In this document: one piece after another, positions 13,805 through 28,654 of the stretch | Layout: every line of letters starts with the position of its first letter | Position numbering within the stretch: position 1 is the first letter of the stretch | Source of the DNA: Phenylobacterium sp. | GTDB taxonomy: Bacteria > Pseudomonadota > Alphaproteobacteria > Caulobacterales > Caulobacteraceae | Assembly (NCBI RefSeq): GCF_016793225.1 | Contig: NZ_JAEUMN010000079.1 | Coordinates: 51,872 to 115,871 of the forward strand | Reading direction: 5' to 3' | Length of the DNA: 64,000 nucleotides | Made by a program: the position numbers and the translations under genes | Notes under the pieces: generated by a model | Database searches by the model: none | What the model saw: only the letters and a program-made list of their open reading frames with translations | Told to the model about the DNA's origin: nothing

Positions 13805-14299
13805 TCAGCCGATCGCGTACATGAAGTGCCGGACGCCCCAGTCCATGCGCACGCCGCAACCGACCGCCAGCACCCCGTTCAGCCAGGCGTAGCGCGGGTC
13901 GGCCGTCTCGAAGACCGGGGCGATGCGGATCGAGTAGGCGCTGGGGTCCACCTCGGGGGCGGCCGGATCGCGGAACGCCGCCGCCACGGCGTCCGGCACG
14001 ACGCTGCGGCCCGCGTACGTAAGGTGGATCAGCGCCCCGTCGTGCGTCCGCCACATCGAGCGCGCGTCGAAGGCGGCGACCTGAACGCCGGGCTCCATCT
14101 GACCGCCGTGGGACCAGTTGCCGCCGCCCGGCAGGATCTCGCCGTCAAGACGCGCGCCGCGGAACCGGCCTCCGGTGATGTAGCCGACCCTGCGGGCGCT
14201 GAACGGCGTCTGGCCCAGCGCCATGATGCCGCCCTCGACCTCGAAGTCGGCGATGCACAGGGGCGTGCTGACCAGGCCCGGGAAGGCGAGCTCGCTCAT
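13805..14299 (-). CDS. DUF3237 family protein
   Basis: A 164-residue protein of the DUF3237 family, function unknown, with no signal peptide or membrane segment. Shared family blocks are HDGALIHLTYAGR near the middle and APVFETADPRYAWLNGVLAVG near the end; both recur in the paralogue at 36271. The ATG overlaps the upstream hydrolase stop (ATGA), so it is co-translated with it. The start MSELAFPGLVSTPLC matches the paralogue's beta-strand opening. Recurrence next to aromatic catabolism genes in this window suggests a role in the pathway rather than housekeeping. Confidence 0.85.
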   Translation of the reverse strand: MSELAFPGLVSTPLCIADFEVEGGIMALGQTPFSARRVGYITGGRFRGARLDGEILPGGGNWSHGGQMEPGVQVAAFDARSMWRTHDGALIHLTYAGRSVVPDAVAAAFRDPAAPEVDPSAYSIRIAPVFETADPRYAWLNGVLAVGCGVRMDWGVRHFMYAIG

Positions 14300-15465
14300 C
14301 CGGCCTTCTTCGCGACCCACGCGCACAGGAGGTCGGCCATGTCGTCGCGGACCTGGCGGCTGTCCTCGAAGTAGTGCTGGCCCTTGATGAGCTGCAGCTC
14401 CTTGTCGGCGCACCCGATGTTGTCGAAGATCTTGTGGGCGTCGCTGGGGAAGACCCCCGTGTCGGCGAGGCCCTGGACGACCAGGCTGGGCGTGTCGAAC
14501 TTCGCCAGCTGCTCGGCGCCCTGGCACTTCGACGTCTCCAGGCTCCACATCGACAGCCAGGTCTTCAGGTTGTTGGCGCGGCCGATGCTGGGGGAGCGGT
14601 TCGCCACGGCGGGGTGGCCTCGGTAGCACATGGGCGTCTGCCGCTCGGACGGGTCGATGCTGCCGTCCATCATCCGCAGGTCGCCCCAGCAGCGGAACAG
14701 CGGGAACAGCCGGTCGGGGACGCCGGCCGCGTTCAGCCTGGCCAGCTCGGCCTTGGCCCAGTCGGTGATGCGCTGGTTGCGGGCGCGCTGGGCGGCGCGG
14801 TAGCGGGTGATGAACTCCGGCGAGTACGGCGGACCGTTCTCGGGGTTGAACGGGTTCAGGCTCTCGTCGGTGGCCACCGGGTCGTTCTCGTCGACCACCG
14901 AGGCGTCCATCCAGTCGGTGAGCACCTCCGGGCGCCCCTGGTGGGCGTTCAGCGAGATGTAGAGATCGGCCTTGGGCAGGGTGTTCAGCGCCTCGAGGCC
15001 GGGGCCGCTGAGGAGATCGCCCAGGGTCGGCGCGATGGCCTCGGCCTGATAGGCCCCCATCAGCGAGCCCCCGCCCGAGTTGCCCAGGATCACCACGCAC
15101 TCGACGCCGGCCTTCTCCTTCAGCCACCGCACGCCCACGCCGATGTCGATGACCGCATGCTCCAGCAGGAACTGGTCCTCGGCGCCGCGGTAGCGGGTGT
15201 TCCAGCCCAGGAACCCGTAGCCCCGCGAGGCCAGGTACGGGGCGATGTAGTGCTCGGAGAAGTCGACGTTGTAGTGGGTGGCGATGAAGGCGACCTTCGG
15301 GCGCTTGCCCTTCGGGGCCGTGTAGATGCCCTGGCAGGGGTGGCCGCCCGCCATGATCCGCGGCGAGGTCGGCGAGACGAACCCCAGGAACTCGCGGTCC
15401 AGCCCCGCCAGAAGGTCACTGTCGTCGATCACGCCTCGCCCCCTATGATCCGGCGAGACCTTCAC
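14296..15465 (-). CDS. Alpha/beta hydrolase-fold protein
   Basis: A 389-residue alpha/beta hydrolase. VVILGNSGGGSLMGAYQ carries the nucleophile elbow (G-N-S-G-G), with a candidate acid in LVVQGLADTGVFPSD and a His in KGQHYFED near the C-terminus. No signal peptide, so probably cytoplasmic. The frame opens with GTG 15465; a second GTG at 15432 has a better site (AGGGGGCGAGG) and would move the operator O2 clear of the coding region, so the real start may be there. It heads a two-gene operon with the DUF3237 gene, divergent from the acyl-CoA ligase. It could cleave an ester or a C-C bond of a ring-opening product; sequence does not decide. Confidence 0.8.
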   Translation of the reverse strand: MKVSPDHRGRGVIDDSDLLAGLDREFLGFVSPTSPRIMAGGHPCQGIYTAPKGKRPKVAFIATHYNVDFSEHYIAPYLASRGYGFLGWNTRYRGAEDQFLLEHAVIDIGVGVRWLKEKAGVECVVILGNSGGGSLMGAYQAEAIAPTLGDLLSGPGLEALNTLPKADLYISLNAHQGRPEVLTDWMDASVVDENDPVATDESLNPFNPENGPPYSPEFITRYRAAQRARNQRITDWAKAELARLNAAGVPDRLFPLFRCWGDLRMMDGSIDPSERQTPMCYRGHPAVANRSPSIGRANNLKTWLSMWSLETSKCQGAEQLAKFDTPSLVVQGLADTGVFPSDAHKIFDNIGCADKELQLIKGQHYFEDSRQVRDDMADLLCAWVAKKAG

Positions 15466-15545: not shown

Positions 15546-17174
15546 ATGCGGGCCCTGATGCAGGACTGGTCCCTGACCCTGGACAAGATCCTCGACCACG
15601 CCGCCCGCTGGCACGGGGAGCGCGAGATCGTCACCCGGTCGGTCGAGGGCCCGCTGGTGCGCTCGGACTACGCGCGCCTGAAGCAGCGGGCCAAGCAGGT
15701 GTCGCACGGCCTGCTGGAGATGGGCGTCCGTCCCGGCGACCGCATCGCCACCCTGGGCTGGAACAGCGATCGCCACCTGGAGACCTGGTACGGGACGATC
15801 GGCGTCGGCGCGGTGCTGCACACCCTGAACCCGCGGCTCTTCCCGGAGCAGCTCGTCTACATCGCCAACCACGCCGGCGACACGGTGCTGTTCGCCGACC
15901 CCGCCTGCGCCGCGCTGCTGGAGGAGATCCTGCCGCAGTGTCCGACAATCCGCCGGGTGATCTTCCTGAGCGCCGAGGCGCCCGCCACGTCCTTCCCGGC
16001 GGACGCCTACGAGCCCTGGCTGGCCGACCGCCCGCAGGACACGCCGTGGGGCGGCTTCGACGAGTCCTCCGCGGCAGGCCTCTGCTACACCTCGGGCACG
16101 ACCGGCAATCCGAAGGGCGTGCTCTACGGCCACCGGTCGAACTACATCCACGCGATGATGACGCTGCAGCCCGACGCGCTGAACCTCTCGGCGCGCGACA
16201 CGGTGCTGCTCAGCGTGCCCATGTACCACGCCAACGCCTGGGGCGTGATGTACTCGGCCCCGCTGGTGGGGGCGAAGCTGGTGCTGCCGGGCCAGAAGCT
16301 GGACGGCGCCTCGCTGCACGAACTGATGGAGACCGAGGGCGTCACCTATTCCGCCGGCGTGCCGACGCTCTGGCAGATGCTGCTGGCCCACCTGAAGGAG
16401 ACGAACGGCAGGCTCACGACCCTTCAGCGGGCGACGGTCGGCGGCTCGGCCTGCCCCGAGTCGATCATCCGCACCCTGCACGACGACTACGGCGTCGACG
16501 TGATCCAGGGCTGGGGGATGACCGAGACCTCGCCGCTGGCGACCATCTCGATCCCGAAGCGGCCGGGCCTCAGCTTCGAGGAGGCCCTGCCCGGCAAGCT
16601 CAAGCAGGGCCGCCTCGTGGGCAATCTCGACCTGAAGCTGGTGGACGACGAGGGCCGGCGGCTGCCGCACGACGGCAAGACCTTCGGCCGGCTGATGATC
16701 AAGGGCCCGACGGTGGCCAGCGGCTACTACGGCAGCCCGCACAACTCGGCGGTGGACGACGAGGGCTTCTTCGACACCGGCGACGTCGCCGCCATCGACG
16801 AGCACGGCGACATGCAGATCACCGACCGGGCCAAGGACGTCATCAAGTCGGGCGGCGAGTGGATCTCCTCCATCGACGTGGAGAACATCGCCGTCGGTCA
16901 CCCCAAGGCGGCGCTCTGCGCCGTGCTGGGCGTCGTGCACCCGAAATGGGACGAGCGGCCGGTGCTGCTGGTCCAGCTGGAACCGGGAGCCGCCGCCGAG
17001 AAGCAGGAGTTCCTGGACTTCCTGGACGGCAAGATCGCCCGCTGGTGGATGCCGGACGACGTGATCTTCGTCGACGAGATCCCCATCGGCGCCACCGGCA
17101 AGATCGACAAGAAGAAGCTGCGCGAACGCCTGACCGGCTACCAGCTCCCGTTCGATCCGAACCTCAAGCGGTAG
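15546..17174 (+). CDS. AMP-dependent acid:CoA ligase
   Basis: A 542-residue acyl-adenylate-forming ligase that would activate a carboxylic acid with ATP and CoA. The P-loop-like signature [12 protein letters not shown] lies near residue 183, GWGMTETSP near 321, the hinge aspartate motif [32 protein letters not shown] around 415-445, and the catalytic lysine in [13 protein letters not shown] near 520. Length and the [16 protein letters not shown] block resemble medium-chain acyl-CoA and methylmercaptopropionate-CoA ligases (DmdB-like), but substrate specificity cannot be assigned. The ribosome site is GGAGGAAG. Its 3' end overlaps the convergent FMN reductase by 11 bases, with no terminator between. 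Confidence 0.88.
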
Positions 17175-17751
17175 GCGGCGACAGCTTCTCGGCCAGCTCG
17201 ATCACCCGGGCGGCCATCACGCCGAGCAGCTGCGCCGGCAGCGCCTCCTTCAGCTTGCCGTTCTCGTCGAACGCCGTGGCGGCGGCCGGGATCAGCACCT
17301 GTTCGGTCGCCACGACGGTCTGGATGGTGCCCAGGATCTGGCGCAGGTGGGTCACGCCGCGCAGGCCGCCGAAGGGGCTGATGGACGCGCCCATGATCCC
17401 GGCCACCTTGCCGCGGAAGCCCGCGATGATGGTCGCCGGCTGGTCCTCGAAGGGCCGCGAGGCCCAGTCGATGGCGTTCTTCAGGACGCCGCTGATCGAG
17501 CCGTTGTACTCGGGCGAGGCGATCAGGAAGCCGTGGTGCGTGAGAAAAAGCGCCCGCAGGTCCCGCGCCCCCTGCGGATAGGCCGTCCGCTCCAGGTCGG
17601 CGTCGTAGAGCGGCAGGTCGAAGTCCTTCAGGTGGATGGACGTCACCTCGGCGCCGCGGTCCCGCGCCTCGGCCACGGCCAGGTCCAGGAGCGCCTGGTT
17701 CAGCGATCCGGCGCGCGTGCTGCCGGAGAAGGCGAGGAGCTTGACGGCCAT
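17164..17751 (-). CDS. NADPH-dependent FMN reductase family protein
   Basis: A 195-residue flavodoxin-fold reductase. GSTRAGSLNQALL near residue 10 binds the FMN phosphate, and SPEYNGSISGVLKNAIDW near 79-96 is the family signature. It could supply reduced flavin to the two-component monooxygenase at 3139, or act as a quinone or azo reductase. It lies 15 bases downstream of the MarR gene on the same strand, so they are probably co-transcribed, the common layout of a MarR regulator with an oxidoreductase. Confidence 0.87.
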   Translation of the reverse strand: MAVKLLAFSGSTRAGSLNQALLDLAVAEARDRGAEVTSIHLKDFDLPLYDADLERTAYPQGARDLRALFLTHHGFLIASPEYNGSISGVLKNAIDWASRPFEDQPATIIAGFRGKVAGIMGASISPFGGLRGVTHLRQILGTIQTVVATEQVLIPAAATAFDENGKLKEALPAQLLGVMAARVIELAEKLSPPTA

Positions 17752-17766: not shown

Positions 17767-18246
17767 TCAGACGGAGGAATCGGAGTTGGCGTCCTCGCCC
17801 ACGTCCTCGGCGAGGTTGCGGGCGACCTGGCTCAGGGCCTTCTTCAGGACGGCCACGTCCCGCTCGGACAGCCCCTTCAGGGCGATGGCGTTCACCTCGG
17901 CGACGGCCGGCAGCAGCAGGGGCTGCAGCGCCCTGGCCTGCGGCGTCAGGAACACGTGCACCTTGCGCCGATCCTCGTCGCTCTTGCGGCGGACGACGAA
18001 GCCGCTGCGTTCGAGGCTCTTGAGGGCGATGACGGTCGTGGGCTCGCGCATCCCTACCCGCCGGCTCAGCTCGCGCTGGGTGATCCCGTCCTCTCTCCAG
18101 AGCACGCGCAGGAACCGCCACTGCCCGCTCGAGACGCCGTGCGGCGCGGTGCGCATCTCGAGCGCCCGCGAGAACGAGCGGAAGGCGATGCGGGTCAGGT
18201 AGCCGATGCTGTTGCCGGGATCGGCGTAGACTTGGATATCCGTCAT
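17767..18246 (-). CDS. MarR-family transcriptional regulator
   Basis: A 159-residue winged-helix regulator. ITQRELSRRVGMREPTTVIALKSLERSGFV is the recognition region and KSDEDRRKVHVFLT the wing with the DxRR signature. ATG 18246 is chosen because MTDIQVYADP follows GGAAGG and an upstream extension is low in family likeness. Divergent from the MetE-like gene; a perfect TTAG-N4-CTAA repeat (18336-18351) lies in the shared region about 90 bases upstream. It is the best in-window candidate for the protein reading the eight O sites, since the other MarR gene sits beside a different palindrome. Promoter-proximal autoregulation would be expected; this is inference. Confidence 0.88.
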   Translation of the reverse strand: MTDIQVYADPGNSIGYLTRIAFRSFSRALEMRTAPHGVSSGQWRFLRVLWREDGITQRELSRRVGMREPTTVIALKSLERSGFVVRRKSDEDRRKVHVFLTPQARALQPLLLPAVAEVNAIALKGLSERDVAVLKKALSQVARNLAEDVGEDANSDSSV

Positions 18247-18335
18247 GGGCCCGAGCCTTCCACCGTCCGCGCCGCACTGCAATCCGGCCACCCACCACCC
18301 CGCGTTGACAGGCCCATCCACCGACCCTACCGATA

Positions 18336-18351: not shown

Positions 18352-18365
18352 ATTTGGAACGTCCG

Positions 18366-19424
18366 ATGGTGCTGCCCGGCCTGCCGCTCCTGCCCACCAC
18401 GATCGTCGGCAGCTACCCGCAGCCGGACTGGCTCATCGACCGGGAGGGATTGAAGTCCCGGTTGCCGCCGCGCGTGCGCGCGCAGGAGCTGTGGCGCATC
18501 AAGGACCCGCAGCAACTGGCCGACGCCCAGGAGGCGGCGACGCTGGTGGCGGTCAGCGACCAGAAGCTGGCGGGGATCCACATCGTCGGCGACGGCGAGA
18601 TGCGCCGGGAAAGTTACTCAAATCGGTTGGCGACCTCGCTCGCGGGCATCGAGACGGATCCGCCGGGGCAGGCGATGGACCGGACGGGCAAGATGAACCC
18701 GGTGCCCCGGGTCGCGGGGCCGATCCGCCGCACCTCGCCCATCGAGTCGCAGGACGCCGCCTTTCTGAAGGCGCGCGCGGGATGCCCGGTGAAGATCACC
18801 ATCCCGGGCCCCTTCACCATGACCCAGCAGGCGCAGAACGACCACTATCCCGACATGGCCGCCCTGGCGCTGGACTACGCCGACGCCGTCAACGCCGAGG
18901 CGCGGGACCTGTTCGCCGCGGGCGTCGACATCGTGCAGCTGGACGAGCCCTACCTGCAGGCCAAGGCGGACGAGGCGCGCAGCTTCGCCATCGAGGCCAT
19001 CAACCGGGCCGTGAAGGGTGTCGGCGGCGTCACCGCCCTGCACATCTGCTTCGGCTACGCCCACGTCCACCAGGGGGCCAGCAAGCCGGGCGGCTACGCG
19101 TTCCTGGAGGAACTCGAGGACTCCCACATCGACATCATCTCGATCGAGGCGGCCCAGCCCAGACTCGACCCGTCGATCCTGCGGGAGCTGCCGACCAAGC
19201 ACATCATGTACGGCGTGATCGACCTGAACGATCCCGACGTGGAGACGCCCGAGGTGGTGGCGGACCGCATCCGCCAGGCCCTGCCCTACATCGACGCCGA
19301 GCGCCTGCTGATCGCCCCGGACTGCGGCATGAAGTACATCAGCCGCGAGACCGCCTTCGGCAAGCTGAAGGCCATGGCCGACGGCGCGGCGATCGTGCGC
19401 CGGGAGCTGACCGGCTCAGACTGA
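18366..19424 (+). CDS. MetE-family (cobalamin-independent methionine synthase C-terminal-like) protein
   Basis: A 352-residue protein of the single-domain MetE/UROD-like family. TTIVGSYPQPDW opens the barrel, and zinc ligands are visible as His226-x-Cys228 (LHICFGYAH), Glu261 and Cys320 (APDCGMKY). Relatives transfer methyl or alkyl groups between thiols: small methionine synthases and epoxyalkane:coenzyme M transferase belong here. It lacks the N-terminal half of full-length MetE (~750 residues), so folate-dependent methionine synthesis is not assured. The start is ATG 18366, just after operator O3; TTG 18354 is possible. The gene overlaps the convergent hydrolase-like gene by nine bases. 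In this setting a role in thiol or methyl chemistry of the catabolic pathway is plausible but unproven. Confidence 0.83.
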   Translation: MVLPGLPLLPTTIVGSYPQPDWLIDREGLKSRLPPRVRAQELWRIKDPQQLADAQEAATLVAVSDQKLAGIHIVGDGEMRRESYSNRLATSLAGIETDPPGQAMDRTGKMNPVPRVAGPIRRTSPIESQDAAFLKARAGCPVKITIPGPFTMTQQAQNDHYPDMAALALDYADAVNAEARDLFAAGVDIVQLDEPYLQAKADEARSFAIEAINRAVKGVGGVTALHICFGYAHVHQGASKPGGYAFLEELEDSHIDIISIEAAQPRLDPSILRELPTKHIMYGVIDLNDPDVETPEVVADRIRQALPYIDAERLLIAPDCGMKYISRETAFGKLKAMADGAAIVRRELTGSD

Positions 19425-20126
19425 GGCCTGTCCGGCCAGCCAGTCGGCCAGCAGGCGATTCGTGGCGTGGGGCCGCTCCAGCGTCGGCAGGTGGCCGCAG
19501 TCGTCGATCGTCACGCCCCGGGCGCCGGGAACGCCGCCGACGATCTCCTCGAAGTGCGCCTGCGTGGTGATCCCGTCCTGGGAGCCCCTGACCACCAGGG
19601 TGGGCGTGGTGATCGCCGGCAGTCCAGGCCGGCTGTCGGCGCGCGCCATGATCGCCCTCTGCTGGCGCAGGAAGGTCTCGGCGCCGGTGTCCGCCGCCAT
19701 GCGCCGCACGACCTCGAGCAGCGGCGCGTCCTCCCGCCGGGCCGGGTGGACGAGGATCGGAATGCGCTCCTCGACGACCTCGGCGAAGCGGCCCGCCTCC
19801 ACCAGCCGGATGTAGCCCTGCCGCCGCTCCGTCTGGGCCGGTCCGTCGTTGGGCGCGAGGGTGGCGATCAGGACCAGGCTCGCGAGCCGCTCGGGCGCGC
19901 GGCGGGCGACCTCGAAGGCCGTGAAGCCGCCCATGGCGTGGGCGACCAGGTGGAAGCGTTCGGGCGCCTCGGCGAGCAGCCGATCGGCCATGCCGCCGAT
20001 GGTCTCGTCCCGCGTGTGGTCGGACAGGCGAAGGTCGTAGTCCCGTGACAAGCCCGCGATCTGCGGGGCCCAGCATTCGGCGGTGAGCAGCTGCCCAGAG
20101 GCGAAGACGACGGCAGGACGCGGCAT
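19416..20126 (-). CDS. Alpha/beta hydrolase-fold protein lacking the nucleophile serine
   Basis: A 236-residue alpha/beta hydrolase-fold protein, last gene of the kinase operon. The elbow normally written G-H-S-M-G-G reads AHAMGG here: Ala64 (codon GCC) replaces the nucleophile Ser. The acid (GSQDGIT) and His (DDCGHLPTLERP) remain. It may be non-hydrolytic, as in hydroxynitrile-lyase-like or cofactor-free dioxygenase branches, or structural; a single-base change from TCC also allows recent loss of function. Its ATG shares one base with the preceding stop (TGATG), so it is still translated with the operon. No signal peptide. Confidence 0.8.
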   Translation of the reverse strand: MPRPAVVFASGQLLTAECWAPQIAGLSRDYDLRLSDHTRDETIGGMADRLLAEAPERFHLVAHAMGGFTAFEVARRAPERLASLVLIATLAPNDGPAQTERRQGYIRLVEAGRFAEVVEERIPILVHPARREDAPLLEVVRRMAADTGAETFLRQQRAIMARADSRPGLPAITTPTLVVRGSQDGITTQAHFEEIVGGVPGARGVTIDDCGHLPTLERPHATNRLLADWLAGQASV

Positions 20127-21073
20127 CAGACCACCTGGTGGACCAGCGGCCGGCCCGAGCCCAGCCGCGCGCAGTTGTCGAACGCGACCGTCAGGCTGCG
20201 GTCAAGCGTCTCGGGTGTCAGCCAGGCCATGTGCGGGGCCACGACGACGTTGGGCAGGGCCAGCAGCGGGTTGGTCGGATCCACCGGTTCCTGGGCGAAG
20301 ACGTCGAGCCCGGCGCCCCGCAGCCGCCCCGACTGCAGCGCTTCGAGCAGGGCCGGCTCGTCGACGAGCCCGCCGCGGGCGGTGTTCACCAGGATCGCGC
20401 CGGGTCGCATGGCGGCCAGCGCCTCGGCGTCGATCAGGTGTTCGGTCTCCGGGGTGAGCGGCAGGTGCAACGAGACGATGTCCGCCTCGGCCAGCAGTTC
20501 GGGCAGGGTGCGGAACGGCGCGGCGACCTCGGGCTTGGCGCTGCGGGCGGTGTAGATCACCCGGGCCCCCAGCGCTTCCACCACCGGCCCAAGCCGTGAC
20601 GCCGAGGCGCCGTAGCCGACAAACCCCACCGTCCGCCCGGCGATCTCGCCGGCGCCGTCCACCAGGTCGGGATCGGGCGCCCAGCCATCCCCGCGCCGGG
20701 TCAGCGGATCCAGGTAGGAGATCCGGCGCAGGACGGCGAGCATCAGGGTCAGCGCCATCTCGGCCACGGCCTGGCTGTTCGTGCCCGGCATGTTGCAGAC
20801 CGCGACGCCGGCGTGCTTGGCCGCCTCCAGGTCGATGGTGTTCACGCCGACGCCCAGCTTCTGGATCAGCCGCAGCTTCGGCGCGCCCGCGATCATCTGC
20901 GCGGTCACCGGCTTGAGCACATGCAGAAGGACGTCCGCGTCGGCGATCTCGCGCGCGAAGCCGGCGTCATCCGTCTCGTCGACGACCACGGCGTCGACGC
21001 CCGCCGCGGCCGCCTGCGCGGCGAGCGCGGCGCGGAAGCCGCGGCTGGCGCGGTAGTGGAGCACCGCCTTCAT
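20126..21073 (-). CDS. D-isomer specific 2-hydroxyacid dehydrogenase
   Basis: A 315-residue NAD-dependent dehydrogenase of the phosphoglycerate dehydrogenase family, interconverting a 2-hydroxyacid and a 2-oxoacid. The cofactor turn is GFVGYGASASRLG, where the usual third Gly of GxGxxG is Ala. Catalytic residues are Arg in NTARGGLVDE, Glu in DVFAQEPVDP and His in APHMAWLTPE. Length matches the short, regulatory-domain-free members. ATGA overlap with the enolase-like gene upstream and TGATG with the hydrolase-like gene downstream show tight coupling, so it should act in the same pathway as these two rather than in serine synthesis. Confidence 0.88.
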   Translation of the reverse strand: MKAVLHYRASRGFRAALAAQAAAAGVDAVVVDETDDAGFAREIADADVLLHVLKPVTAQMIAGAPKLRLIQKLGVGVNTIDLEAAKHAGVAVCNMPGTNSQAVAEMALTLMLAVLRRISYLDPLTRRGDGWAPDPDLVDGAGEIAGRTVGFVGYGASASRLGPVVEALGARVIYTARSAKPEVAAPFRTLPELLAEADIVSLHLPLTPETEHLIDAEALAAMRPGAILVNTARGGLVDEPALLEALQSGRLRGAGLDVFAQEPVDPTNPLLALPNVVVAPHMAWLTPETLDRSLTVAFDNCARLGSGRPLVHQVV

Positions 21074-22371
21074 GCGAGGCCCGCCGCCACCGAGGGCGCG
21101 AACGCGGAGGGGCCGGCGAACACGGCGTCCGCGCCCATGGCCTCCTCGATCCGCAGCAGCTCGTTCCACTTCGCCATCCGTTCCGAGCGCGCGAAGCTGC
21201 CGACCTTGATCTGCCCGGCGTCCCAGCCGGTGGCGAGATGGGCGATGCTGACGTCCTCGGTCTCGCCCGAGCGGGCCGAGACGATGGCCCCCCAGCCCAG
21301 GGCCCGCGCCGCATCCAGCGCCGCCTTGGCCCGCGAGACGAGCCCCGCCTGGTTCACCTTGACCAGCACCGCGTTGCCCGCGCCGGCGGCCGCGGCCCGG
21401 CGCACACGCTCGGCGCTGGTCACCAGGATGTCGTCGCCGATGAGCTGGACGCGATCGCCGTAGGCGCGGGTGGCCTGGCCGAAGCCGTCGAGGTCGTCCT
21501 GCGAGACCGGATCCTCGATGGAGAGGATGGGGTAGCGCCGCACCCAGTCGGCCACCTGTTCGACCATCTCGGCGGTGGACAGCTCGCGCGTCTCCAGGCC
21601 CAGGCGGTAGCGGCCGCCGCCCACGTCCAGTTCGTTGGCCGCGATGTCCAGCGAGATGAACACGTCCTCGCCCGGCCGGTGGCCCGAACGCTCGATGGAC
21701 TGCGTCAGCGCCTGGAGCGCGTCCTCGTTGGAGTCGAAGGCCGGCCACCAGCCGCCCTCGTCGGCGGCCCCTGCCAGGCGGCCCGTCTCGGCCATCAGCC
21801 GGCCGGCGGCGTGGAACACGTCGGCGGTCACCTCCAGCGCCTCGCGCACGCTGTCGGCCTTCGGGACCATCACCATGAAGTCCTGGACGTCGGTGCGCCG
21901 GCCCGCGTGGGCGCCGCCGCCGAAGATCTGGATCTCCGGCAGGGGCACGCGGACCTTCCGCCCCTGGGCCAGGTGCGCCCACAGCGGCAGGCCCTCGGCC
22001 GCGGCCGCGGCGTGCAGCGCCGCCAGCGAGACCGCGACGGTGGCGTTGCCGCCCAGGCGGCCAAGGTTCGGCGTGCCGTCCAGGGCCTCCAGCCGCGCGT
22101 CGAGCGCCGCCTGGTCGGCCGCGTCCGCGCCCGCGAGCGCCGCGGCGATCTCGCCGTTCACGCCGGCGACGGCGCGGTCGACGCCCAGGCCGCCGAAGCG
22201 GGCGCCCCCGTCGCGCAGTTCGTGCGCCTCGTGCGCGCCGCGCGAGGCCCCGGCGGGCGCACAGGCGCGGCCGGTCGCGCCGCCGGCCAGGGCCACCTCG
22301 GCCTCCACCGTAGGCCGCCCGCGCGAATCCCAGACCTGCCGGGCGCGCACCGCCGTGATCGTCGTCTTCAT
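21070..22371 (-). CDS. Enolase-family protein with altered active site
   Basis: A 433-residue homologue of true enolase (2-phosphoglycerate dehydratase), full length. Retained, in yeast numbering, are the metal ligands Asp246 (D242 here), Glu295 (E286) and Asp320 (D313), the base Lys345 (K338), Lys396 (K389), His159 (H155) and Glu211 (E205). Changed are His373 to Ala366 (SARSGETED instead of SHRSGETED), Glu168 to Asp164, Ser36 to Ala40 and Thr40 to Arg44 in the mobile loop, and NGG to FGG near 150. These are phosphate and substrate contacts, so a non-glycolytic substrate is likely. Overlaps the kinase gene upstream and the dehydrogenase downstream by ATGA. The housekeeping enolase would be expected elsewhere in the genome. 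Confidence 0.85.
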   Translation of the reverse strand: MKTTITAVRARQVWDSRGRPTVEAEVALAGGATGRACAPAGASRGAHEAHELRDGGARFGGLGVDRAVAGVNGEIAAALAGADAADQAALDARLEALDGTPNLGRLGGNATVAVSLAALHAAAAAEGLPLWAHLAQGRKVRVPLPEIQIFGGGAHAGRRTDVQDFMVMVPKADSVREALEVTADVFHAAGRLMAETGRLAGAADEGGWWPAFDSNEDALQALTQSIERSGHRPGEDVFISLDIAANELDVGGGRYRLGLETRELSTAEMVEQVADWVRRYPILSIEDPVSQDDLDGFGQATRAYGDRVQLIGDDILVTSAERVRRAAAAGAGNAVLVKVNQAGLVSRAKAALDAARALGWGAIVSARSGETEDVSIAHLATGWDAGQIKVGSFARSERMAKWNELLRIEEAMGADAVFAGPSAFAPSVAAGLA

Positions 22372-23366
22372 CGCGCCTCCAGCGCCCTGCCCCATTCCGC
22401 CGCCAGCCCGTCGAGCCCATCCACGTCGGCCGCGATCAGCCGCCGGGCCGTCCCGCGCACGAACGCCTTGTCGGCGTCGGCCTGGAGGTACTCGGCGGGG
22501 GACTTGCCGTCCACGCGGGCCAGCAGGATCGCCGCCGCGAGCCTCGCCGCGCGGGCGTCCAGGCCTGCGGGAGCCTCCCAGGTCACGCCGGCGAGGTAGG
22601 CGGCCTGCAGGCGCGCCAGAGCCGCCAGGTAGGCCGGCGCATGTGCGGGCTTCCACACCGTCTTCAGATGCAGATGGGCCGTGCAGAAGGCGAGATCGAA
22701 GGCCGGATCGCCATACCACGCGCACTCCGCGTCCAGCAGCACCGGGCCGGCCGGTCCGTGCAGGATGTTCTTGGGGCTCGCGTCGCCGTGCACCAGCGAG
22801 ATGCGCCGCGCCGCCGTCGTGTCCGCCAGGTCGACCAGACGCCGCGCCAGGTCCGGGTGCGCCAGCGCCGCGTGCCGGAAGAACGGCGCCAGGCGCAGCT
22901 CCTCGAAGAGCGCCGTGGTGTCGAACCGGGCCGCCAGCGCCGGGTCCCCCGCGGCGCCCGCATGCAGCGCCGCGAGCAGCGAGCCCACGCGGGCGGCGAA
23001 GTCGGCGTCCACCTCTCCCGCGGCCAGGTCGGACTTCCAGACGCTGTGCGCGGCGGGGTCGAAGAAGGTCATGACGAAGAGGTGCGCGTCGCGATCCTCG
23101 TAGATCACCTTGGGGATCGCGCCCCCGGCGAACGGCTCGGACGCGCGAAGCCATTCCACCTCGTAATGCGAACGCTCCACGGGCGCGCGCCAGTCGGCCG
23201 CCACGCGCAGCTTGGGCAGGGCCCGCTTGACGCCATAGACGCCATGGGCCGTCTCGAGCCGGAACACGTCGCTGGACACGCCGCCCGTCAGCGGCTCGAG
23301 GCGCGCGACGTCGCCGTCGGCCAGGAAGCCGCCGCGCCTCAGAGCGTCCAGGATCTCGGCCGACAT
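22368..23366 (-). CDS. Aminoglycoside phosphotransferase-fold small-molecule kinase
   Basis: A 332-residue kinase of the APH/choline-kinase fold, first gene of the four-gene operon. Brenner motif LVHGDASPKNIL (His193, Asp195) gives the catalytic aspartate, and LLDAECAWYGDPAFDLA (Asp212) the metal-binding aspartate. An N-terminal glycine-rich loop LTGGVSSDVFRL binds ATP. Such proteins phosphorylate a hydroxyl of a small molecule; with an enolase homologue and a hydroxyacid dehydrogenase next to it, a hydroxyacid or sugar-acid substrate is a reasonable guess, not a conclusion. Methylthioribose kinase is an alternative. Operator O4 lies nine bases before the ATG. Confidence 0.85.
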   Translation of the reverse strand: MSAEILDALRRGGFLADGDVARLEPLTGGVSSDVFRLETAHGVYGVKRALPKLRVAADWRAPVERSHYEVEWLRASEPFAGGAIPKVIYEDRDAHLFVMTFFDPAAHSVWKSDLAAGEVDADFAARVGSLLAALHAGAAGDPALAARFDTTALFEELRLAPFFRHAALAHPDLARRLVDLADTTAARRISLVHGDASPKNILHGPAGPVLLDAECAWYGDPAFDLAFCTAHLHLKTVWKPAHAPAYLAALARLQAAYLAGVTWEAPAGLDARAARLAAAILLARVDGKSPAEYLQADADKAFVRGTARRLIAADVDGLDGLAAEWGRALEAR

Positions 23367-23407: not shown

Positions 23408-23698
23408 TCAGACCGCGTCATAGACCTCGACCACGGTCCGCTCGGCGATCAGCGGCGCCATGCGGGGGCGGTTCGCCACGATGTGGGGCGCGGCGCGATG
23501 GGCCTCCAGGGCCGCGTCGTCGTCGTAGAGCTCCATCACCACGTAGCTGTCCGGATCCTGGCGCGAGCGCACCAGCTGGTAGAGCCGGTTGGCCGGCTCG
23601 TTCGCCCGCACGCCCTTCGCCTGCTCGGCGAACGCCGCCTCGAACTCCGCGCCCTTGCCCGCCACCACCTTCACGCGGGCGATCACACCGATCGTCAC
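23408..23698 (-). CDS. Antibiotic biosynthesis monooxygenase (ABM) domain protein
   Basis: A 96-residue single ABM/dimeric alpha-beta barrel domain. It opens MTIGVIARVKVVAGKGAEFEAAF and contains ELYDDDAALEAHRAAPH, the conserved second helix with His. Such proteins are cofactor-free monooxygenases or isomerases of quinone-like rings, or binding proteins. GTG 23698 is preceded by GGGAGGAA. Last gene of a five-gene set with TonB receptor, VOC protein, MFS transporter and CMD protein. Confidence 0.82.
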   Translation of the reverse strand: MTIGVIARVKVVAGKGAEFEAAFAEQAKGVRANEPANRLYQLVRSRQDPDSYVVMELYDDDAALEAHRAAPHIVANRPRMAPLIAERTVVEVYDAV

Positions 23699-23715
23699 AG
23701 GGTTCCTCCCAAAGC

Positions 23716-24354
23716 TCACGCGCCGCCGCGTTCGGCCCAGACCGGATCGCGCCAGTCCTGCACCCCGCCCTGCTCGGGCGCAGGGATCTCGACCACGCGC
23801 TCGGGCACGTCGTCGTACTCGAGGCGCAGCGCCTTCGTGCTGGTGGCGTGCAGCGCATACATGTTCACGAAGTAGGTCAGCATCAGGATGTGGTCTTCCG
23901 GCAGCGCCTTGCGCAGCGCCGCGAACACGCAGTCGTGCACCCGTCCGCCTTCGAGGATCATCCCGTCCACATAGGCCAGCACCGCGCGCTCGGCGTCGCT
24001 GAAGACGTCCGAGATCGTCCAGTAGGGCACGGCGCGGACCTTCTCCTCGCTCACGCCCGCGCGGCGCGCCGACTTCGAGTGCTGGGAGAAGACGAAGTGG
24101 CTCCCGCGCGCGTAGCCCGTCCGCAGCACGGCCAGCTCGCGCAGCTGGGGATCGAGCGGGCAGTCGCCCGCCGGATAGGCCCGGAACGCGCGCAGGATCC
24201 CCGGCACCCGCGCCCAGGCGGTCCACCAGTTGCCCGGGGTCCCCGTGGCCGTGCCCGGCTCCTCCACCGGATCGCGGGCGCCGAAGACCTCGGCGTAGAA
24301 GGCCAGGACGTCCTCGGGCGCCTTGCTGCGGGAAAGGGGCGTTACGCGGGGCAT
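23716..24354 (-). CDS. Carboxymuconolactone decarboxylase (CMD) family protein
   Basis: A 212-residue CMD-fold protein. EPGTATGTPGNWWTAWARVP and GSHFVFSQHSKSARRAGVSEEKV carry the conserved His and downstream helix; the AhpD-type redox CxxC is absent. It is a close paralogue of the protein at 31960, which has SQHCKS at the same place. PcaC at 36834 is a separate, shorter family member, so this copy probably has another substrate. The start is ATG 24354 with a CAGGAG site. Lies between the MFS and ABM genes in one minus-strand operon. Confidence 0.83.
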   Translation of the reverse strand: MPRVTPLSRSKAPEDVLAFYAEVFGARDPVEEPGTATGTPGNWWTAWARVPGILRAFRAYPAGDCPLDPQLRELAVLRTGYARGSHFVFSQHSKSARRAGVSEEKVRAVPYWTISDVFSDAERAVLAYVDGMILEGGRVHDCVFAALRKALPEDHILMLTYFVNMYALHATSTKALRLEYDDVPERVVEIPAPEQGGVQDWRDPVWAERGGA

Positions 24355-24388
24355 CAGCGAACTCCTGACGACGTTCGGAAAATGGGTT

Positions 24389-25768
24389 TCATGCCGCCGG
24401 CGCCTCATGCTGCCGGGCGGACCGTTCGAGGCTGTCGCGCAGGCCGGGGCGGCCGACAGCGAGCAGGCCGACGACCAGCGGCGTGATCACGGCGCTGGCC
24501 GTGGCGAGGGACCAGCCCACGGCCATCTCGTCGCGGTAGAGATAGTCGGTCAGCATCGCCACCACGGTGGGGCCCGTGGCGACCCCCAGCAGGTTGGTGA
24601 CCAGCGAGAACAGCGCGGTCAGCTGGCCCCGCAGCTGGTTCGGGGCCACGGCCTGCAGCGCCGTCATGATCAGCGACACGGGGAAGCTGCTGAAGAACGT
24701 CGAGCACACCAGGAGGCCGAGGGCGATCTCGGCTGTCGGCGCGAACATGGCGCTGATGAAGAGGACCATGGTGGTGGTGGCCGAGATCATCGGCAGCAGG
24801 AAGTAGGCGTCGCGGACGCCCCGGCTTTCCATCCACTCGGCGACCCGGCCGCCCGCCAGCACGCCGGCGCCGCCCATGACCGCCAGGATCCCGCCGTAGA
24901 CGTAGCCGATGTCCTGCGGCGCCCACTCGTGCACGCGAATGAAGAAGGTGGGGGTCCAGGCGACGACGCCGAACCCCAGCATCGAGCTCATCGAGAAGCC
25001 GGCGAAGTGGCTGAAGATCATGCGCCGGTTGGCGCCCAGGAAGGCGCGCATCTCGCCCCGCCCGGCCCCGCTGGAGGTCGCCGCGCGGGTGACGCCCCGC
25101 CGCGCCGGCTCCTTCACGAAGGCCATGGGGATCAGCACCAGGAGCCCGCCCAGGCCCACCAGCACGAAGGTCATCTGCCAGGGCCGCAGCACGCCCAGGC
25201 CGGGCAGCGCGATGGGCGGCAGCTGGGCGACCAGGTGGATCGCGAGCCCGCCGATCACCAGGGCCAGGCCGGCCCCGACGTACTGCGCGCCCGTGTAGAA
25301 GCTGATCGCCCGCGTCAGCTTGTGACGCGGGAAGTAGTCGCTGATGGTCGACAGCGCGCTGGGGCCCAGCGACGCCTCGCCGATGCCCACGGAGATCCGG
25401 GCGACGAACAGCTGGATGAAGTTCTGCGCGGCGCCGCACGCCGCGGTGGCGAGGCCCCAGAACAGGGCCCCCAGCATGATGATCCGCTTGCGGTTTCCCC
25501 GGTCGGCCAGGCGGCCGAACAGGAGGCCGAACACGACGAAGAAGATCACGAAGGCGGCGCCCGCGAGCAGGCTCACCTCCGTGTCCGTCAGGTTGAAGTC
25601 CCGCTTGATGGGCGCGAACAGCAGCGTGAGGATCTGCCGCTCGACGTAGGACATCATGTTGACCAGCGACAGCGCGCCGACGACGAACCAGGCGTAGGTC
25701 GCCGGCGGATACTCTGCCGAGGCCGGCGCGGGCGACGACGAGGGTTCGGTCTGCGCCTGCGCGGTCAT
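24389..25768 (-). CDS. MFS transporter (spinster/ACS-like)
   Basis: A 459-residue inner-membrane major facilitator with about 12 hydrophobic segments. The loop 2-3 signature appears as GLLFGRLADRGNRKRIIMLG, and the first helix contains NMMSYVERQILTLLFAPIKRDF, an opening common in spinster-like and aromatic acid/organic anion carriers. It follows the VOC gene by seven bases, so it is in the same transcript. It probably moves an aromatic or organic acid across the inner membrane after TonB uptake. A similar transporter is encoded at 34950. Confidence 0.88.
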   Translation of the reverse strand: MTAQAQTEPSSSPAPASAEYPPATYAWFVVGALSLVNMMSYVERQILTLLFAPIKRDFNLTDTEVSLLAGAAFVIFFVVFGLLFGRLADRGNRKRIIMLGALFWGLATAACGAAQNFIQLFVARISVGIGEASLGPSALSTISDYFPRHKLTRAISFYTGAQYVGAGLALVIGGLAIHLVAQLPPIALPGLGVLRPWQMTFVLVGLGGLLVLIPMAFVKEPARRGVTRAATSSGAGRGEMRAFLGANRRMIFSHFAGFSMSSMLGFGVVAWTPTFFIRVHEWAPQDIGYVYGGILAVMGGAGVLAGGRVAEWMESRGVRDAYFLLPMISATTTMVLFISAMFAPTAEIALGLLVCSTFFSSFPVSLIMTALQAVAPNQLRGQLTALFSLVTNLLGVATGPTVVAMLTDYLYRDEMAVGWSLATASAVITPLVVGLLAVGRPGLRDSLERSARQHEAPAA

Positions 25769-25775
25769 CTGGGTC

Positions 25776-26351
25776 TTAGGCCGGAACCTTGCCCAGGGCG
25801 TTCAGCGGCACGCGCTCGCCCTTGGCGTTGACCGGATCGTGGGCCACGTCGCTGGGCCGGTAGTCGCGGGTCAGCGCCGCAAGCTCCATGTGGATGCCGT
25901 TCGGGTCGCGGAAGTACATCGACCGGATCCACGTGAGCGGGGTGACCTCGTCCGAACCGTGCCGGTCGGAGTCCTCGTGGTTCAGCACCCGCAGCGACAC
26001 GCCCTTCTTGCGCAGGCGATCGGCGTACTCGTCGAACTTCTCCAGCGGGATGTTGATCGCCAGGTGGTTCATCGAGGCGTGCGCCGTCTGCGAGCCCACC
26101 TTCTGGTAGTCGGGATGCATCGAGGCGACGCCGGGCGCCGCCTCCGGCGCATTGGGGAACCAGAAGAAGGCGATCGAGCCGCCGCCGCCGCAGTCGAAGA
26201 AGAAGTGCTGACCGCGCCCGTTGGGCAGGTCGATCGTCTTCACGAGCGGCATCTCCAGGACGTTGGTGTAGAAATCCACCGTCTCGGCCATGTCGCGGGC
26301 GACAAGGGCCACGTGGTTCACGCCGCTGTAGCGCATGGGCTCAGTCATCAT
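25776..26351 (-). CDS. VOC (glyoxalase/extradiol dioxygenase-fold) protein
   Basis: A 191-residue vicinal-oxygen-chelate protein. Metal ligands can be read as His in SGVNHVAL, His in ASMNHLA and Glu in IHMELAA. FYTNVLEMPLVKTIDLP and GQHFFFDCGGGGSIAFFWFP are shared with the two paralogues at 30306 and 30889. The family includes extradiol dioxygenases, glyoxalases and epimerases; length and the single complete H-H-E set allow any of these. ATG 26351 or the adjacent ATG 26348 follows AAGGAG. Located between a TonB receptor and an MFS gene. Confidence 0.84.
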   Translation of the reverse strand: MMTEPMRYSGVNHVALVARDMAETVDFYTNVLEMPLVKTIDLPNGRGQHFFFDCGGGGSIAFFWFPNAPEAAPGVASMHPDYQKVGSQTAHASMNHLAINIPLEKFDEYADRLRKKGVSLRVLNHEDSDRHGSDEVTPLTWIRSMYFRDPNGIHMELAALTRDYRPSDVAHDPVNAKGERVPLNALGKVPA

Positions 26352-26377: not shown

Positions 26378-28603
26378 CTATTCGCCGAGGTTGACCCGCA
26401 GCTCGACCCCGTACGTGCGGGGCTCGGCGAAGTAGAGCTGGGTCAGCACGCCGGCGGTGGGCACGGCGGAGAGCCGGTGCGCCACATTGTTCAGGTTCTT
26501 GCCCCAGAGCGACGCGCGCCAGCGGCCCTTGGGCTCGACGTAGGTCAGGCTCGCGTCCCAGACGTTGTAGGCCTTCTGGAAGCCCTGCGGCACGTTCAGG
26601 GTGTCGGTGAAGTGCGAGCCCTCGTGCGACCAGGCCACGTCGGGGGTGATGGTCCCGCCGCCCGCCAGTTCGAAGTCGTACGAGACGCTGACGCGGCTGG
26701 TGACCTCCGGCACGCGGGTCGGCACCAGCTTGCAGGGGCCGCTGAGCGAGCGGTCGCGCAGGCCGCCGCAGGGGTTGGCCGCCGTGGCCGCGCCGCCCGA
26801 GAGGTTGGCGACGAAGCTGGTGTACTCGGCGTCAAGGTAGCCGACCGACGCACTCACGGTCAGGTTCTCGATCGGCAGCGCCGTGACCTCGAACTCGATG
26901 CCGCGGGCGCGCTCGTTGGCGTTGTTGGCGACCACCTGCTCCTCGCCGGTGCCCACCGTCGCCGGCCGGAACACCGAGACCTGCAGGTCGCTGTACTTGT
27001 TCCAGAACGCCGCCACGTTCACCCGCAGCCGGTTCTCCAGCCAGTCGGATTTCAGGCCGATCTCGAACGCCTTGGCCTTCTCGGGACGGAACGGCCCGAT
27101 GGTGGCCGCCGAGGCGGCGCGCGAGTTGAAGCCGCCGCTCTTGAAGCCCGTCGAGTAGCTCGCATAGACCATCGCGTCGGCGTTGATCTGGTAGTTGGCG
27201 CCGAGGTGGTAGGTGAACCGCGACCAGTCCTCGGACGCGACCACAGCGGGCGTGGCCGCGAACGTCGCGATCGGACGCTGCAGCCGGCGCACGAAGTCCT
27301 TCTCCTGCCAGGAGTAGCGGCCGCCCGCCGTCAGCGTGAGCTGTTCGGTGACGTCGAAGTCCACCTGCGCGAAGCCGGCGGCGGTCTTCTCCTTCTGGCG
27401 CGACGCCTCGTAGGTCTGGGTCGCGAGGAAGAAGATCTGGTCGGCGTCCCACTTGGTGCGGCCGGCGTAGACGCCGGTCACGAACTGGAACGGGCCCTCC
27501 AGATCGGACTCGATCCGCAGCTCCTGCGACATCGTCTTGTGGCGCTTGCTGGCGGTGGTCTCGAAGAACGCCAGGTCGGTGACGTCGAAGTCGCTGTACG
27601 AGAAGTTCGAGCTGCGGATGATCCCGCTGACCGAGACGATCCGGTAACCCTGGCCCTGGTAGGCGAGGTTGAGGGCGCCGAAGTAGGTGTCCTGGAAGTC
27701 GCCGCTGGGGAAGTTCCGCATGGCGATGAAGGGATCGGTCGGACCGCCCGGGAAGCCGAAGCCGGGCCGCCCCGCCCGCGACAGGGCGTCGGTGGGGAAC
27801 GAGCCGTTCACGCCGCCGACCGAGTCGCTGCGGTCCTTCACGTACGAGTAGCTCGCGTTCACCTCGAGCTTCTCGGTGGCGTTCCACCGCATGGCCAGGC
27901 GGATCGACTGGACGTCGTCGCCGGCCAGCCACTCCTCGACCGGCTGCAGGCCCGCGGGCGTGCGGTAGAGGTTGTGCATGTAGCCCGACGAGTGCTGACG
28001 GGTGGCCGACAGCCGGAAGGCCAGCGAATCGCTCACCGGCAGGTCCGCCGCCATCGAGGCGTCGGCCCGCCCGTAGTTGCCCACGCGCAGCAGGCCGCTG
28101 AAGCTGTAGGCGTCGCCCGGCTTCTTGGTCGTGATGTTGATCACGCCGCCCGTGGTGTTCTTGCCGAACAGCGTGCCCTGCGGGCCCCGCAGCAGTTCGA
28201 TCTGCTGGATGTCGAAGGTGCTCTGCAGCGCGCCGATGTTGCGGGTGAAGAAGACCCCGTCGACCGCGATGCCGACGCTGGGGTCGATCGCCTGGTCCAC
28301 GCCCTGGTAGCCGATGCCCCGCGAGTAGGCGACCGAGGCGTTGCGGTGGATCGCGCCCACGCCCTCGATGGTGAAGTTCGGCGCCGCCCGGGTGAAGTCC
28401 GAGAGGTCCTGCACGAACATCTTCTCGATCTGCGCCTCGCTGACCGCGGTGACGGCCACCGGCGTCTCCTGCAGCGACTCGGCGCGCATCCGGGCCGTGA
28501 CCACCAGTTCCTCGATGGCGTTGTCGTTTTCGGCGGCGCCCGCAGGGGCCCCCACGGCGATCGCGCCCAGGCAGGCCGACGCCATCAGCAGGTTCTTGAA
28601 CAT
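26378..28603 (-). CDS. TonB-dependent receptor
   Basis: A complete 741-residue outer-membrane receptor. The signal peptide ends near APAGA, and the plug begins IEELVVTARMRAESLQETPVAV. IELLRGPQGTLFGKNTTGGVIN marks the plug; YASYSTGFKSGGFN and the final aromatic-rich ELRVNL segment belong to the barrel. ATG 28603 follows GGGGAGGAGGG. It heads a likely operon with VOC, MFS, CMD and ABM genes, the gaps being 26, 7, 34 and 17 bases. Divergent from the LysR gene at 28778. The operon content suggests uptake of an aromatic substrate. Confidence 0.92.
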   Translation of the reverse strand: MFKNLLMASACLGAIAVGAPAGAAENDNAIEELVVTARMRAESLQETPVAVTAVSEAQIEKMFVQDLSDFTRAAPNFTIEGVGAIHRNASVAYSRGIGYQGVDQAIDPSVGIAVDGVFFTRNIGALQSTFDIQQIELLRGPQGTLFGKNTTGGVINITTKKPGDAYSFSGLLRVGNYGRADASMAADLPVSDSLAFRLSATRQHSSGYMHNLYRTPAGLQPVEEWLAGDDVQSIRLAMRWNATEKLEVNASYSYVKDRSDSVGGVNGSFPTDALSRAGRPGFGFPGGPTDPFIAMRNFPSGDFQDTYFGALNLAYQGQGYRIVSVSGIIRSSNFSYSDFDVTDLAFFETTASKRHKTMSQELRIESDLEGPFQFVTGVYAGRTKWDADQIFFLATQTYEASRQKEKTAAGFAQVDFDVTEQLTLTAGGRYSWQEKDFVRRLQRPIATFAATPAVVASEDWSRFTYHLGANYQINADAMVYASYSTGFKSGGFNSRAASAATIGPFRPEKAKAFEIGLKSDWLENRLRVNVAAFWNKYSDLQVSVFRPATVGTGEEQVVANNANERARGIEFEVTALPIENLTVSASVGYLDAEYTSFVANLSGGAATAANPCGGLRDRSLSGPCKLVPTRVPEVTSRVSVSYDFELAGGGTITPDVAWSHEGSHFTDTLNVPQGFQKAYNVWDASLTYVEPKGRWRASLWGKNLNNVAHRLSAVPTAGVLTQLYFAEPRTYGVELRVNLGE

Positions 28604-28654
28604 ATCCCTCCTCCCCGCCGGCATAGCGCCGGTCATTGTCTTGCTTGGGGAGAA

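What the first reader, a model, noticed from the sequence alone, without database searches (positions are those of the whole stretch)
21070..22371. Enolase homologue without His373, in a kinase operon
Metal ligands and the Lys345/Lys396 pair of enolase are intact, but the positions of His373, Glu168, Ser36 and Thr40 (yeast numbering) are Ala366, Asp164, Ala40 and Arg44, and NGG is FGG. In known enolase these residues contact the substrate or close the loop over it, so 2-phosphoglycerate is unlikely to be the substrate. The gene overlaps a small-molecule kinase and a 2-hydroxyacid dehydrogenase, unlike a glycolytic enolase. This suggests an enolase-derived dehydratase or enolising enzyme for another acid.
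Basis: partly seen in the sequence, partly recalled or inferred. Interest (0 to 1): 0.75.

Follow-up and report, generated by a model that had tools for sequence, protein, structure and literature searches.

The report
Kinase-paired enolase paralogue, non-glycolytic
The gene belongs to a widespread but apparently undescribed side-branch of the glycolysis enzyme enolase, whose members have swapped the two residues that hold the departing water and usually sit near one particular kinase gene, so they probably dehydrate a different phosphorylated acid although databases call them ordinary enolase.

Summary
The window genome has a second, canonical enolase, and 28 of 28 other carrier genomes tested have a second enolase too. 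The substitution marks a family: of 118 non-redundant sequences with His373→Ala, all 118 have Glu168→Asp; 33 of 33 canonical ones have His/Glu. Metal ligands, Lys345, Lys396, Glu211, Arg374 and Ser375 are kept in 146 of 146. The swapped pair hydrogen-bonds the water near C3 of PEP in a solved enolase (PMC8996150, passages). With those columns masked, the variants form one side of one branch (SH-aLRT 98). A kinase related to methylthioribose kinase lies within 200 nt in 61 of 80 loci with flanks, and within about 9 kb in 20 of 21 variant against 0 of 20 canonical loci. FAH hydrolases or HpcH/HpaI aldolases, which act on 2-oxo acids, lie near 13 of 21 against 0 of 20. Best reading: a kinase-enolase module dehydrating a 2-phospho-3-hydroxy acid other than 2-phosphoglycerate. 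Substrate unknown; nothing assayed. Ten paper searches showed no description.

The parts
21070..22371 (-). ENO: enolase paralogue with Ala366/Asp164 (His373Ala, Glu168Asp)
22368..23366 (-). KIN: APH-fold small-molecule kinase, distant relative of methylthioribose kinase; overlaps ENO by 4 nt
20126..21073 (-). HDH: D-2-hydroxyacid dehydrogenase family; overlaps ENO by 4 nt
19416..20126 (-). ABH2: alpha/beta hydrolase, distant to 3-oxoadipate enol-lactonase; overlaps HDH by 1 nt
18354..19424 (+). METE: short cobalamin-independent methionine synthase-like protein, conserved in the cluster
17767..18321 (-). MarR-family regulator
17164..17751 (-). NADPH-dependent FMN reductase family
15546..17174 (+). 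AMP-binding acyl-CoA synthetase-like
14296..15465 (-). ABH1: alpha/beta hydrolase-like (Pfam Hydrolase_4 just at threshold)
13805..14293 (-). DUF3237 protein (start not fixed)
23408..23701 (-). Antibiotic biosynthesis monooxygenase (ABM) domain
23716..24408 (-). Carboxymuconolactone decarboxylase family
24389..25768 (-). MFS transporter
25776..26351 (-). VOC/glyoxalase-family protein
26378..28660 (-). TonB-dependent receptor (named from its sequence and from blast to relatives, not from a family search; upstream end approximate)

Best explanation
ENO is a non-glycolytic enolase paralogue that works as the second half of a kinase-enolase module. KIN phosphorylates a hydroxyl of a hydroxy acid, most likely the 2-OH of a 2,3-dihydroxy acid larger than glycerate. 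ENO binds that 2-phospho acid with the unchanged enolase apparatus: two Mg2+ on carboxylate and phosphate, Arg367/Ser368 on phosphate, Lys389 beside the carboxylate. Lys338 removes the C2 proton and Glu205 helps the C3 group leave. The pocket around C3 is rebuilt (His to Ala, Glu to Asp, Asn to Gly or Ser, often Phe at 150) for a bulkier C3 substituent. The product would be a PEP analogue that yields a 2-oxo acid. HDH or SDR enzymes reduce or oxidise it, and in other genomes FAH-type hydrolases or HpcH/HpaI aldolases cleave it. In this window the module sits in a catabolic cluster conserved in related Caulobacteraceae. Shown by computation: residues, gene order, kinase linkage, second enolase, single clade, neighbour families. 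Inferred: the reaction, the site of phosphorylation, the order of steps and the substrate class.
For: Ala366 and Asp164 occur together 118 of 118 times while metal, base and phosphate residues are invariant. The swapped pair holds the water next to PEP C3 in S. elongatus enolase (PMC8996150, passages). Canonical second enolase in the genome and a second enolase in 28 of 28 carriers. Single split on the tree with trait columns masked. KIN within 200 nt in 61 of 80 loci and somewhere in the locus in 68 of 80 (recount on 81 distinct proteins: 59 and 70); 20 of 21 against 0 of 20 canonical neighbourhoods. KIN and ENO distances correlate, Mantel r 0.88, 0 of 2000 permutations, 52 pairs, at least one place counted twice. 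FAH or HpcH/HpaI near 13 of 21 against 0 of 20.
Against: No assay. No KIN was found in 12 of 80 loci (11 of 81 in the recount), among them three Caulobacteraceae orthologues (L038, L040, L041). FAH or HpcH/HpaI is absent near 8 of 21 and neither was recognised in the window genes scanned. The contexts differ so much that one substrate is unlikely. A PEP analogue would need dephosphorylation and no general phosphatase was identified; a true PEP carboxylase lies beside the Rhizobium copies, which could mean that PEP itself is a product there. PMC10619443 gives the counterpart of Glu168 a contact to the carboxylate, so Asp164 may not concern the leaving group alone. No ligand model was made.
Confidence: 0.55

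Rival explanations
1. ATP-primed phosphate elimination: KIN phosphorylates the beta hydroxyl, and ENO takes the alpha proton and expels phosphate rather than water, giving a 2-oxo-3-deoxy or unsaturated acid directly.
For: The water-binding pair at C3 is lost, as expected if water does not leave. KIN's Foldseek matches include LxmK of the lexapeptide dehydratase complex and 25-hydroxysteroid kinase, which I recall as kinases of kinase-plus-lyase eliminations.
Against: Arg367, Ser368, His155 and Ser43, which serve a C2 phosphate in canonical enolase, are invariant or nearly so in the variant group (Ser43 145 of 146 with one gap, the others 146 of 146), and this model leaves that site without a ligand.
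Confidence: 0.15
2. The group leaving from C3 is not water but an alkoxide or phenol (ether cleavage), for example 3-aryloxy-2-phospho-propionate giving PEP and a phenol.
For: Loss of the water pair; aromatic-cleavage genes near five of 21 copies examined (VOC mark) and PEP carboxylase beside the Rhizobium copies.
Against: PEP carboxylase was not recognised in the other aromatic-type clusters. The sugar- and aldolase-type contexts do not need it.
Confidence: 0.08
3. It enolises, epimerises or isomerises an acid without elimination; the kinase belongs to a parallel step.
For: Both lysines (Lys338, Lys389) are intact; proton-transfer-only chemistry is common in the wider enolase superfamily (recalled).
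Against: Glu205 (Glu211), which serves the leaving group in canonical enolase, is invariant (146 of 146); kinase linkage and co-divergence are strong.
Confidence: 0.12
4. It is still an ordinary, perhaps slower, enolase isozyme serving 2-phosphoglycerate made inside catabolic clusters.
For: NCBIfam TIGR01060 accepts it well over its cut-off. Fold and most ligands are unchanged.
Against: Fixed paired change at the C3 water site; Glu163Ala of M. tuberculosis enolase, the same position, is among mutants reported as non-functional (PMC10619443, passages), though that is Ala, not Asp. Own kinase partner.
Confidence: 0.1

Closest known systems
Enolase (phosphopyruvate hydratase, EC 4.2.1.11; PF03952 + PF00113, TIGR01060)
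   Same: Fold (4z17, TM 0.94, 49% identity), both domains, metal ligands, Lys345, Lys396, Glu211, Arg374, Ser375
   Different: His373 is Ala, Glu168 is Asp, Asn152 is Gly or Ser; kinase neighbour; extra copy beside a canonical enolase
Methylthioribose kinase (MtnK), for KIN
   Same: Closest solved fold of KIN (2pyw, TM 0.86, 16% identity); profile match 2olc E 6.9e-19
   Different: 56.8 bits against the MTRK cut-off of 275; no methionine-salvage gene was recognised in the neighbourhoods that I annotated
Kinase-plus-lyase eliminations (class V lanthipeptide LxmK/LxmY; 25-hydroxysteroid kinase and its lyase), roles recalled
   Same: An APH-fold kinase primes an elimination; both kinases appear in the Foldseek list of KIN
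   Different: There the phosphate itself is the leaving group and the lyase is not an enolase (recalled)
Carboxyphosphonoenolpyruvate synthase of phosphinothricin biosynthesis (recalled enolase homologue)
   Same: An enolase-family protein with a substrate other than 2-phosphoglycerate (recalled)

Membership tests
Enolase protein family (PF03952/PF00113) | Both Pfam domains over their cut-offs and the enolase fold | tested here: met
   155.2 and 274.5 bits against 35 and 21.5; model TM 0.94 to 4z17
Enolase protein family (PF03952/PF00113) | Metal ligands and general-base lysine | tested here: met
   D242, E286, D313, K338, 146 of 146 in the variant group
Phosphopyruvate hydratase (glycolytic enolase) | Curated NCBIfam equivalog score TIGR01060 | tested here: met
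   460.5 against 300; the model does not look at single residues
Phosphopyruvate hydratase (glycolytic enolase) | His373 and Glu168 that bind the C3 water | tested here: not met
   Ala366 and Asp164
Phosphopyruvate hydratase (glycolytic enolase) | Conversion of 2-phosphoglycerate to PEP | not testable with these tools
   needs an assay
S-methyl-5-thioribose kinase (for KIN) | NCBIfam TIGR01767 cut-off | tested here: not met
   56.8 against 275 bits
APH phosphotransferase superfamily (for KIN) | PF01636 over its cut-off and the HGD catalytic motif | tested here: met
   63.5 against 23.2 bits; D195 and N200 invariant, H193 and G194 at 96-98%
D-2-hydroxyacid dehydrogenase (for HDH) | PF02826 and PF00389 over their cut-offs | tested here: met
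   186.5 and 85.5 bits against 25.1 and 24.6; no NCBIfam equivalog cut-off reached among the 21 listed
Carboxyphosphonoenolpyruvate synthase | Sequence relation to the phosphinothricin enzyme and phosphonate gene context | not tested
   no reference sequence at hand; no phosphonate gene was recognised among the window genes scanned

The most novel reading that the evidence does not exclude
A general, unrecognised kinase-enolase dehydration module: a dedicated kinase makes 2-phospho derivatives of 2,3-dihydroxy acids and a re-tooled enolase turns them into PEP analogues. It is spread as a two-gene unit over many bacterial phyla and joined to different downstream routes (FAH hydrolase, HpaI aldolase, aromatic ring cleavage), so enolase-fold proteins would carry several non-glycolytic functions that databases label as glycolysis.
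Probability: 0.4. Interest if true: 0.82.

Novelty: new variant of a known kind. Interest (0 to 1): 0.64.

Why it matters
The true enolases are usually treated as one enzyme with one substrate (recalled). A large clade with a fixed pair of active-site changes, its own kinase partner and catabolic gene sets would be a clear exception, and public plasmid records name members phosphopyruvate hydratase and file them under glycolysis. It gives a signature (Ser-Ala-Arg-Ser-Gly-Glu together with Gln-Asp) for correcting annotation. It is also a natural experiment on how enolase specificity is set: the same metal and base machinery with a new leaving-group side. It points to unknown catabolic routes for acids in plant-associated, marine and soil bacteria among others.

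Tried and rejected
Pseudogene or decayed copy: rejected (open frame, dN 0.119 against dS 0.451, catalytic residues fixed). Alignment artefact for His373: rejected (motif SARSGETED against SHRSGETED without gaps). Only enolase of the genome: rejected. Methylthioribose salvage: KIN is only a distant relative and no salvage gene was recognised. PEP carboxylase as a general partner: full-length beside the Rhizobium copies (one scanned; three annotated), divergent in Sphingobium, not recognised in the other aromatic-type clusters. Naming one substrate: tried through neighbours (pectinase GH28, TcuC-type symporter, mannonate-dehydratase-like and lactonase genes, HpaD-like dioxygenase) and given up because the contexts disagree. 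Papers: ten searches listed no paper that looked like a description of this subfamily; only open-licence PMC papers are held and listings were capped. Passages only were read of PMC8996150, PMC10619443, PMC13302981 and PMC12288639; all other papers were seen only as listings.

The Caulobacteraceae and plasmid sets were found by similarity alone. In one search, 15 of 177 sequences shorter than 380 aa were dropped; one search dropped rows under 390 aa or with stops and kept 151 of the remaining 201 after a redundancy filter; the tree used 91 of 151. Some loci are one place fetched twice (L048/L057, L035/L081, L065/L231); one search recounts the kinase linkage on distinct proteins. Most canonical-looking hits, the family-search list itself (cut at the end), and 1,107 of the 1,116 matching plasmid records were not checked residue by residue.
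Full report
1. The gene. Window 21070-22371 (-) encodes a 433-aa protein with both enolase domains. The NCBIfam equivalog model for phosphopyruvate hydratase accepts it (460.5 bits, cut-off 300). It overlaps the kinase upstream (22368-23366) and the 2-hydroxyacid dehydrogenase downstream (20126-21073) by 4 nt each, and the dehydrogenase overlaps an alpha/beta hydrolase (19416-20126) by 1 nt. The four genes look like one translationally coupled run. The genus appears to be Phenylobacterium: contig 1 of same-genus genome G108 has the same length, 235,854 bases, as the Phenylobacterium deserti contig of L081 and holds the same gene. This is an inference.

2. The residues. Yeast numbering is recalled and transferred by motif. 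Metal ligands, Lys345, Lys396, Glu211, His159, Ser39, Arg374 and Ser375 are present as D242/E286/D313, K338, K389, E205, H155, S43, R367 and S368. His373, Glu168, Ser36 and Thr40 are A366, D164, A40 and R44.

3. A second enolase. The window genome has two enolases; the other, at C136, has canonical residues.

4. The family. Of 149 Caulobacteraceae-group genomes searched, 14 including the window's own hold a relative at 63-100% identity, and six more a relative at about 50-55% (list cut at the end). All 20 extracted have Ala/Asp. A plasmid search gave 15 records at 60-80% identity; of nine plasmid loci opened (Rhizobium, Roseibium, Paracoccus, Sphingobium, Cupriavidus, Rhodococcus, Azospirillum) eight are Ala/Asp and one, Azospirillum L176, is canonical. 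Over all full-length sequences 146 of 146 with Ala366 have Asp164, and 16 of 16 with His have Glu. After removing near-copies and adding second copies from carrier genomes the split is 118 Ala/Asp to 33 His/Glu, with no mixed case. Other columns that separate the groups at over 90% are 203, 226, 239, 276 and 397.

5. One clade. With columns 366 and 164 masked, 58 Ala/Asp and 33 canonical sequences lie on two sides of one branch (SH-aLRT 98) and the label needs one change. The variant rows come from Pseudomonadota, Planctomycetota, Verrucomicrobiota, Acidobacteriota, Bacteroidota, Spirochaetota, Chloroflexota, Armatimonadota and Actinomycetota. Many are metagenome bins, but isolates such as Singulisphaera sp. 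GP187, Streptomyces aurantiogriseus, Arenibacter troitsensis and Enterobacter sp. BIGb0383 are among them. All 28 carrier genomes tested have a second enolase; I fetched 20 of these second copies, 19 stayed after the redundancy filter, and all 19 are canonical. In 299 Pseudomonadota genomes, 9 (the window's own and one of its genus among them) have a match of at least 54% identity; more distant members would be missed by that cut.

6. What the changed residues do. In the S. elongatus enolase-PEP structure the water 3.5 A from C3 is hydrogen-bonded to His367 and Glu168, while Arg368 and Ser369 hold the phosphate (PMC8996150, passages; another passage names Glu209 with Glu168). His367 is the residue before Arg368-Ser369, the place of Ala366 here. 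In M. tuberculosis enolase, Glu163Ala belongs to the mutants called non-functional, and the same paper gives Glu163 a contact to the carboxylate (PMC10619443, passages). So the clade kept the alpha side of the active site and jointly changed two residues next to C3. This argues for a different group at C3 rather than a dead enzyme. The AlphaFold2 model (mean pLDDT 94) has the enolase fold; its best solved match is 4z17, TM 0.94, 49% identity.

7. The kinase. Of 80 variant loci with at least 1.2 kb on each side, 61 have a KIN homologue within 200 nt, 7 further off in the same locus and 12 none. A recount on 81 distinct proteins, with longer neighbourhoods added, gives 59, 11 and 11. None of 16 canonical loci has one, though most of those were only about 4 kb long. 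With neighbourhoods of mostly 19 kb the contrast is 20 of 21 against 0 of 20. Against the reading: three Caulobacteraceae orthologues (L038, L040, L041) show no KIN. KIN keeps D195, N200 and D212, and the basic residues K47, R65, K111, R158, K235 and R284 are invariant in 51 sequences. Its nearest solved relatives are methylthioribose kinases (profile E 6.9e-19; Foldseek TM 0.86, 16% identity). KIN and ENO distances correlate over 52 pairs (Mantel r 0.88, 0 of 2000 permutations), as expected of a unit inherited or transferred together; it does not by itself prove joint function.

8. The surroundings. Three kinds of context recur. (a) Rhizobium, Cupriavidus, Variovorax, Trinickia, Streptomyces, Paraburkholderia: cupin, HpaD-like dioxygenase, HpaG-like FAH, zinc alcohol dehydrogenase, mostly with KIN and HDH as a separate pair (none seen in Paraburkholderia). 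(b) Roseibium, Paracoccus, Halocynthiibacter, Ruegeria, Pelagimonas, Arenibacter: FAH and SDR genes, with sugar transporters in several; the FAH proteins scanned in Roseibium and Arenibacter score 342 and 320 bits against the 2,4-didehydro-3-deoxy-L-rhamnonate hydrolase model, below its cut-off of 500. (c) Enterobacter, Verrucomicrobiaceae, Spirochaetaceae: HpcH/HpaI-family aldolase; in Enterobacter also a TcuC-type symporter (525 bits against 445), HDH, a 2-keto-4-pentenoate-hydratase-like protein and a GH28 pectinase upstream. FAH or HpcH/HpaI genes lie near 13 of 21 variant and 0 of 20 canonical enolases; HDH 9 against 0, SDR 7 against 1, LacI 8 against 1. Both cleaving families act on 2-oxo acids (recalled), which fits a module whose output is a 2-oxo acid. 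The window cluster (ABH1, acyl-CoA synthetase-like, FMN reductase, MarR, MetE-like, ABH2, HDH, ENO, KIN, CMD, MFS, VOC, TonB receptor) is conserved in large part among related genomes; no FAH or HpcH/HpaI gene was recognised in it.

9. How it probably works. KIN phosphorylates a hydroxy acid, ENO dehydrates the 2-phospho acid by the usual proton abstraction and beta-elimination in a pocket changed at C3, and dehydrogenases and C-C-cleaving enzymes use the 2-oxo product. Residues, linkage and neighbours are shown; the reaction, the phosphorylated position and the substrate are inferred. The main rival is loss of phosphate from C3; KIN's structural matches include kinases of two elimination systems (roles recalled). 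Invariance of the C2-phosphate residues argues against it.

10. Known or new. By family it is an enolase. By the residues that hold the C3 water it fails the test for phosphopyruvate hydratase, although TIGR01060 accepts it. Ten searches of the held papers showed no description of this subfamily or of the kinase pairing; most subscription papers are not held, so a description may exist. I rate it a new variant of a known kind.

Noticed in passing
L172:12709-15453: Sphingobium sp. TomTYG74 has, beside its variant enolase and kinase, a 914-aa protein annotated hypothetical that is a very divergent PEP carboxylase relative (PEPcase 65 bits); the Rhizobium clusters hold a normal-scoring PEP carboxylase near the same genes.
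   Followed up: partly
L046-L051 (same family as the window): A second, more distant variant group (50-55% identity, NILSGG motif) occurs in other Caulobacteraceae-group genomes, four of six with a VOC or MarR gene nearby and one with KIN.
   Followed up: partly
plasmid collection: 681 Escherichia and 117 Klebsiella plasmid records carry some enolase match under 60% identity to the window protein; whether these are canonical enolase copies was not looked at.
   Followed up: no
L091, L093, L152: Metagenome bins titled Akkermansia muciniphila or Bordetella parapertussis carry the variant; the species titles of such bins look doubtful and were not checked.
   Followed up: no
L110, L167, L157, L105, L108, L153: Chloroflexota and some Planctomycetota carriers show no recognisable KIN in their 8-kb loci, so the variant may work with another partner there.
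   Followed up: no
window 18354-19424: A short MetE-like protein is kept at 73-89% identity beside the cluster in 9 of 13 fetched close orthologue loci (one only partly covered); its role in a catabolic cluster is unexplained.
   Followed up: no
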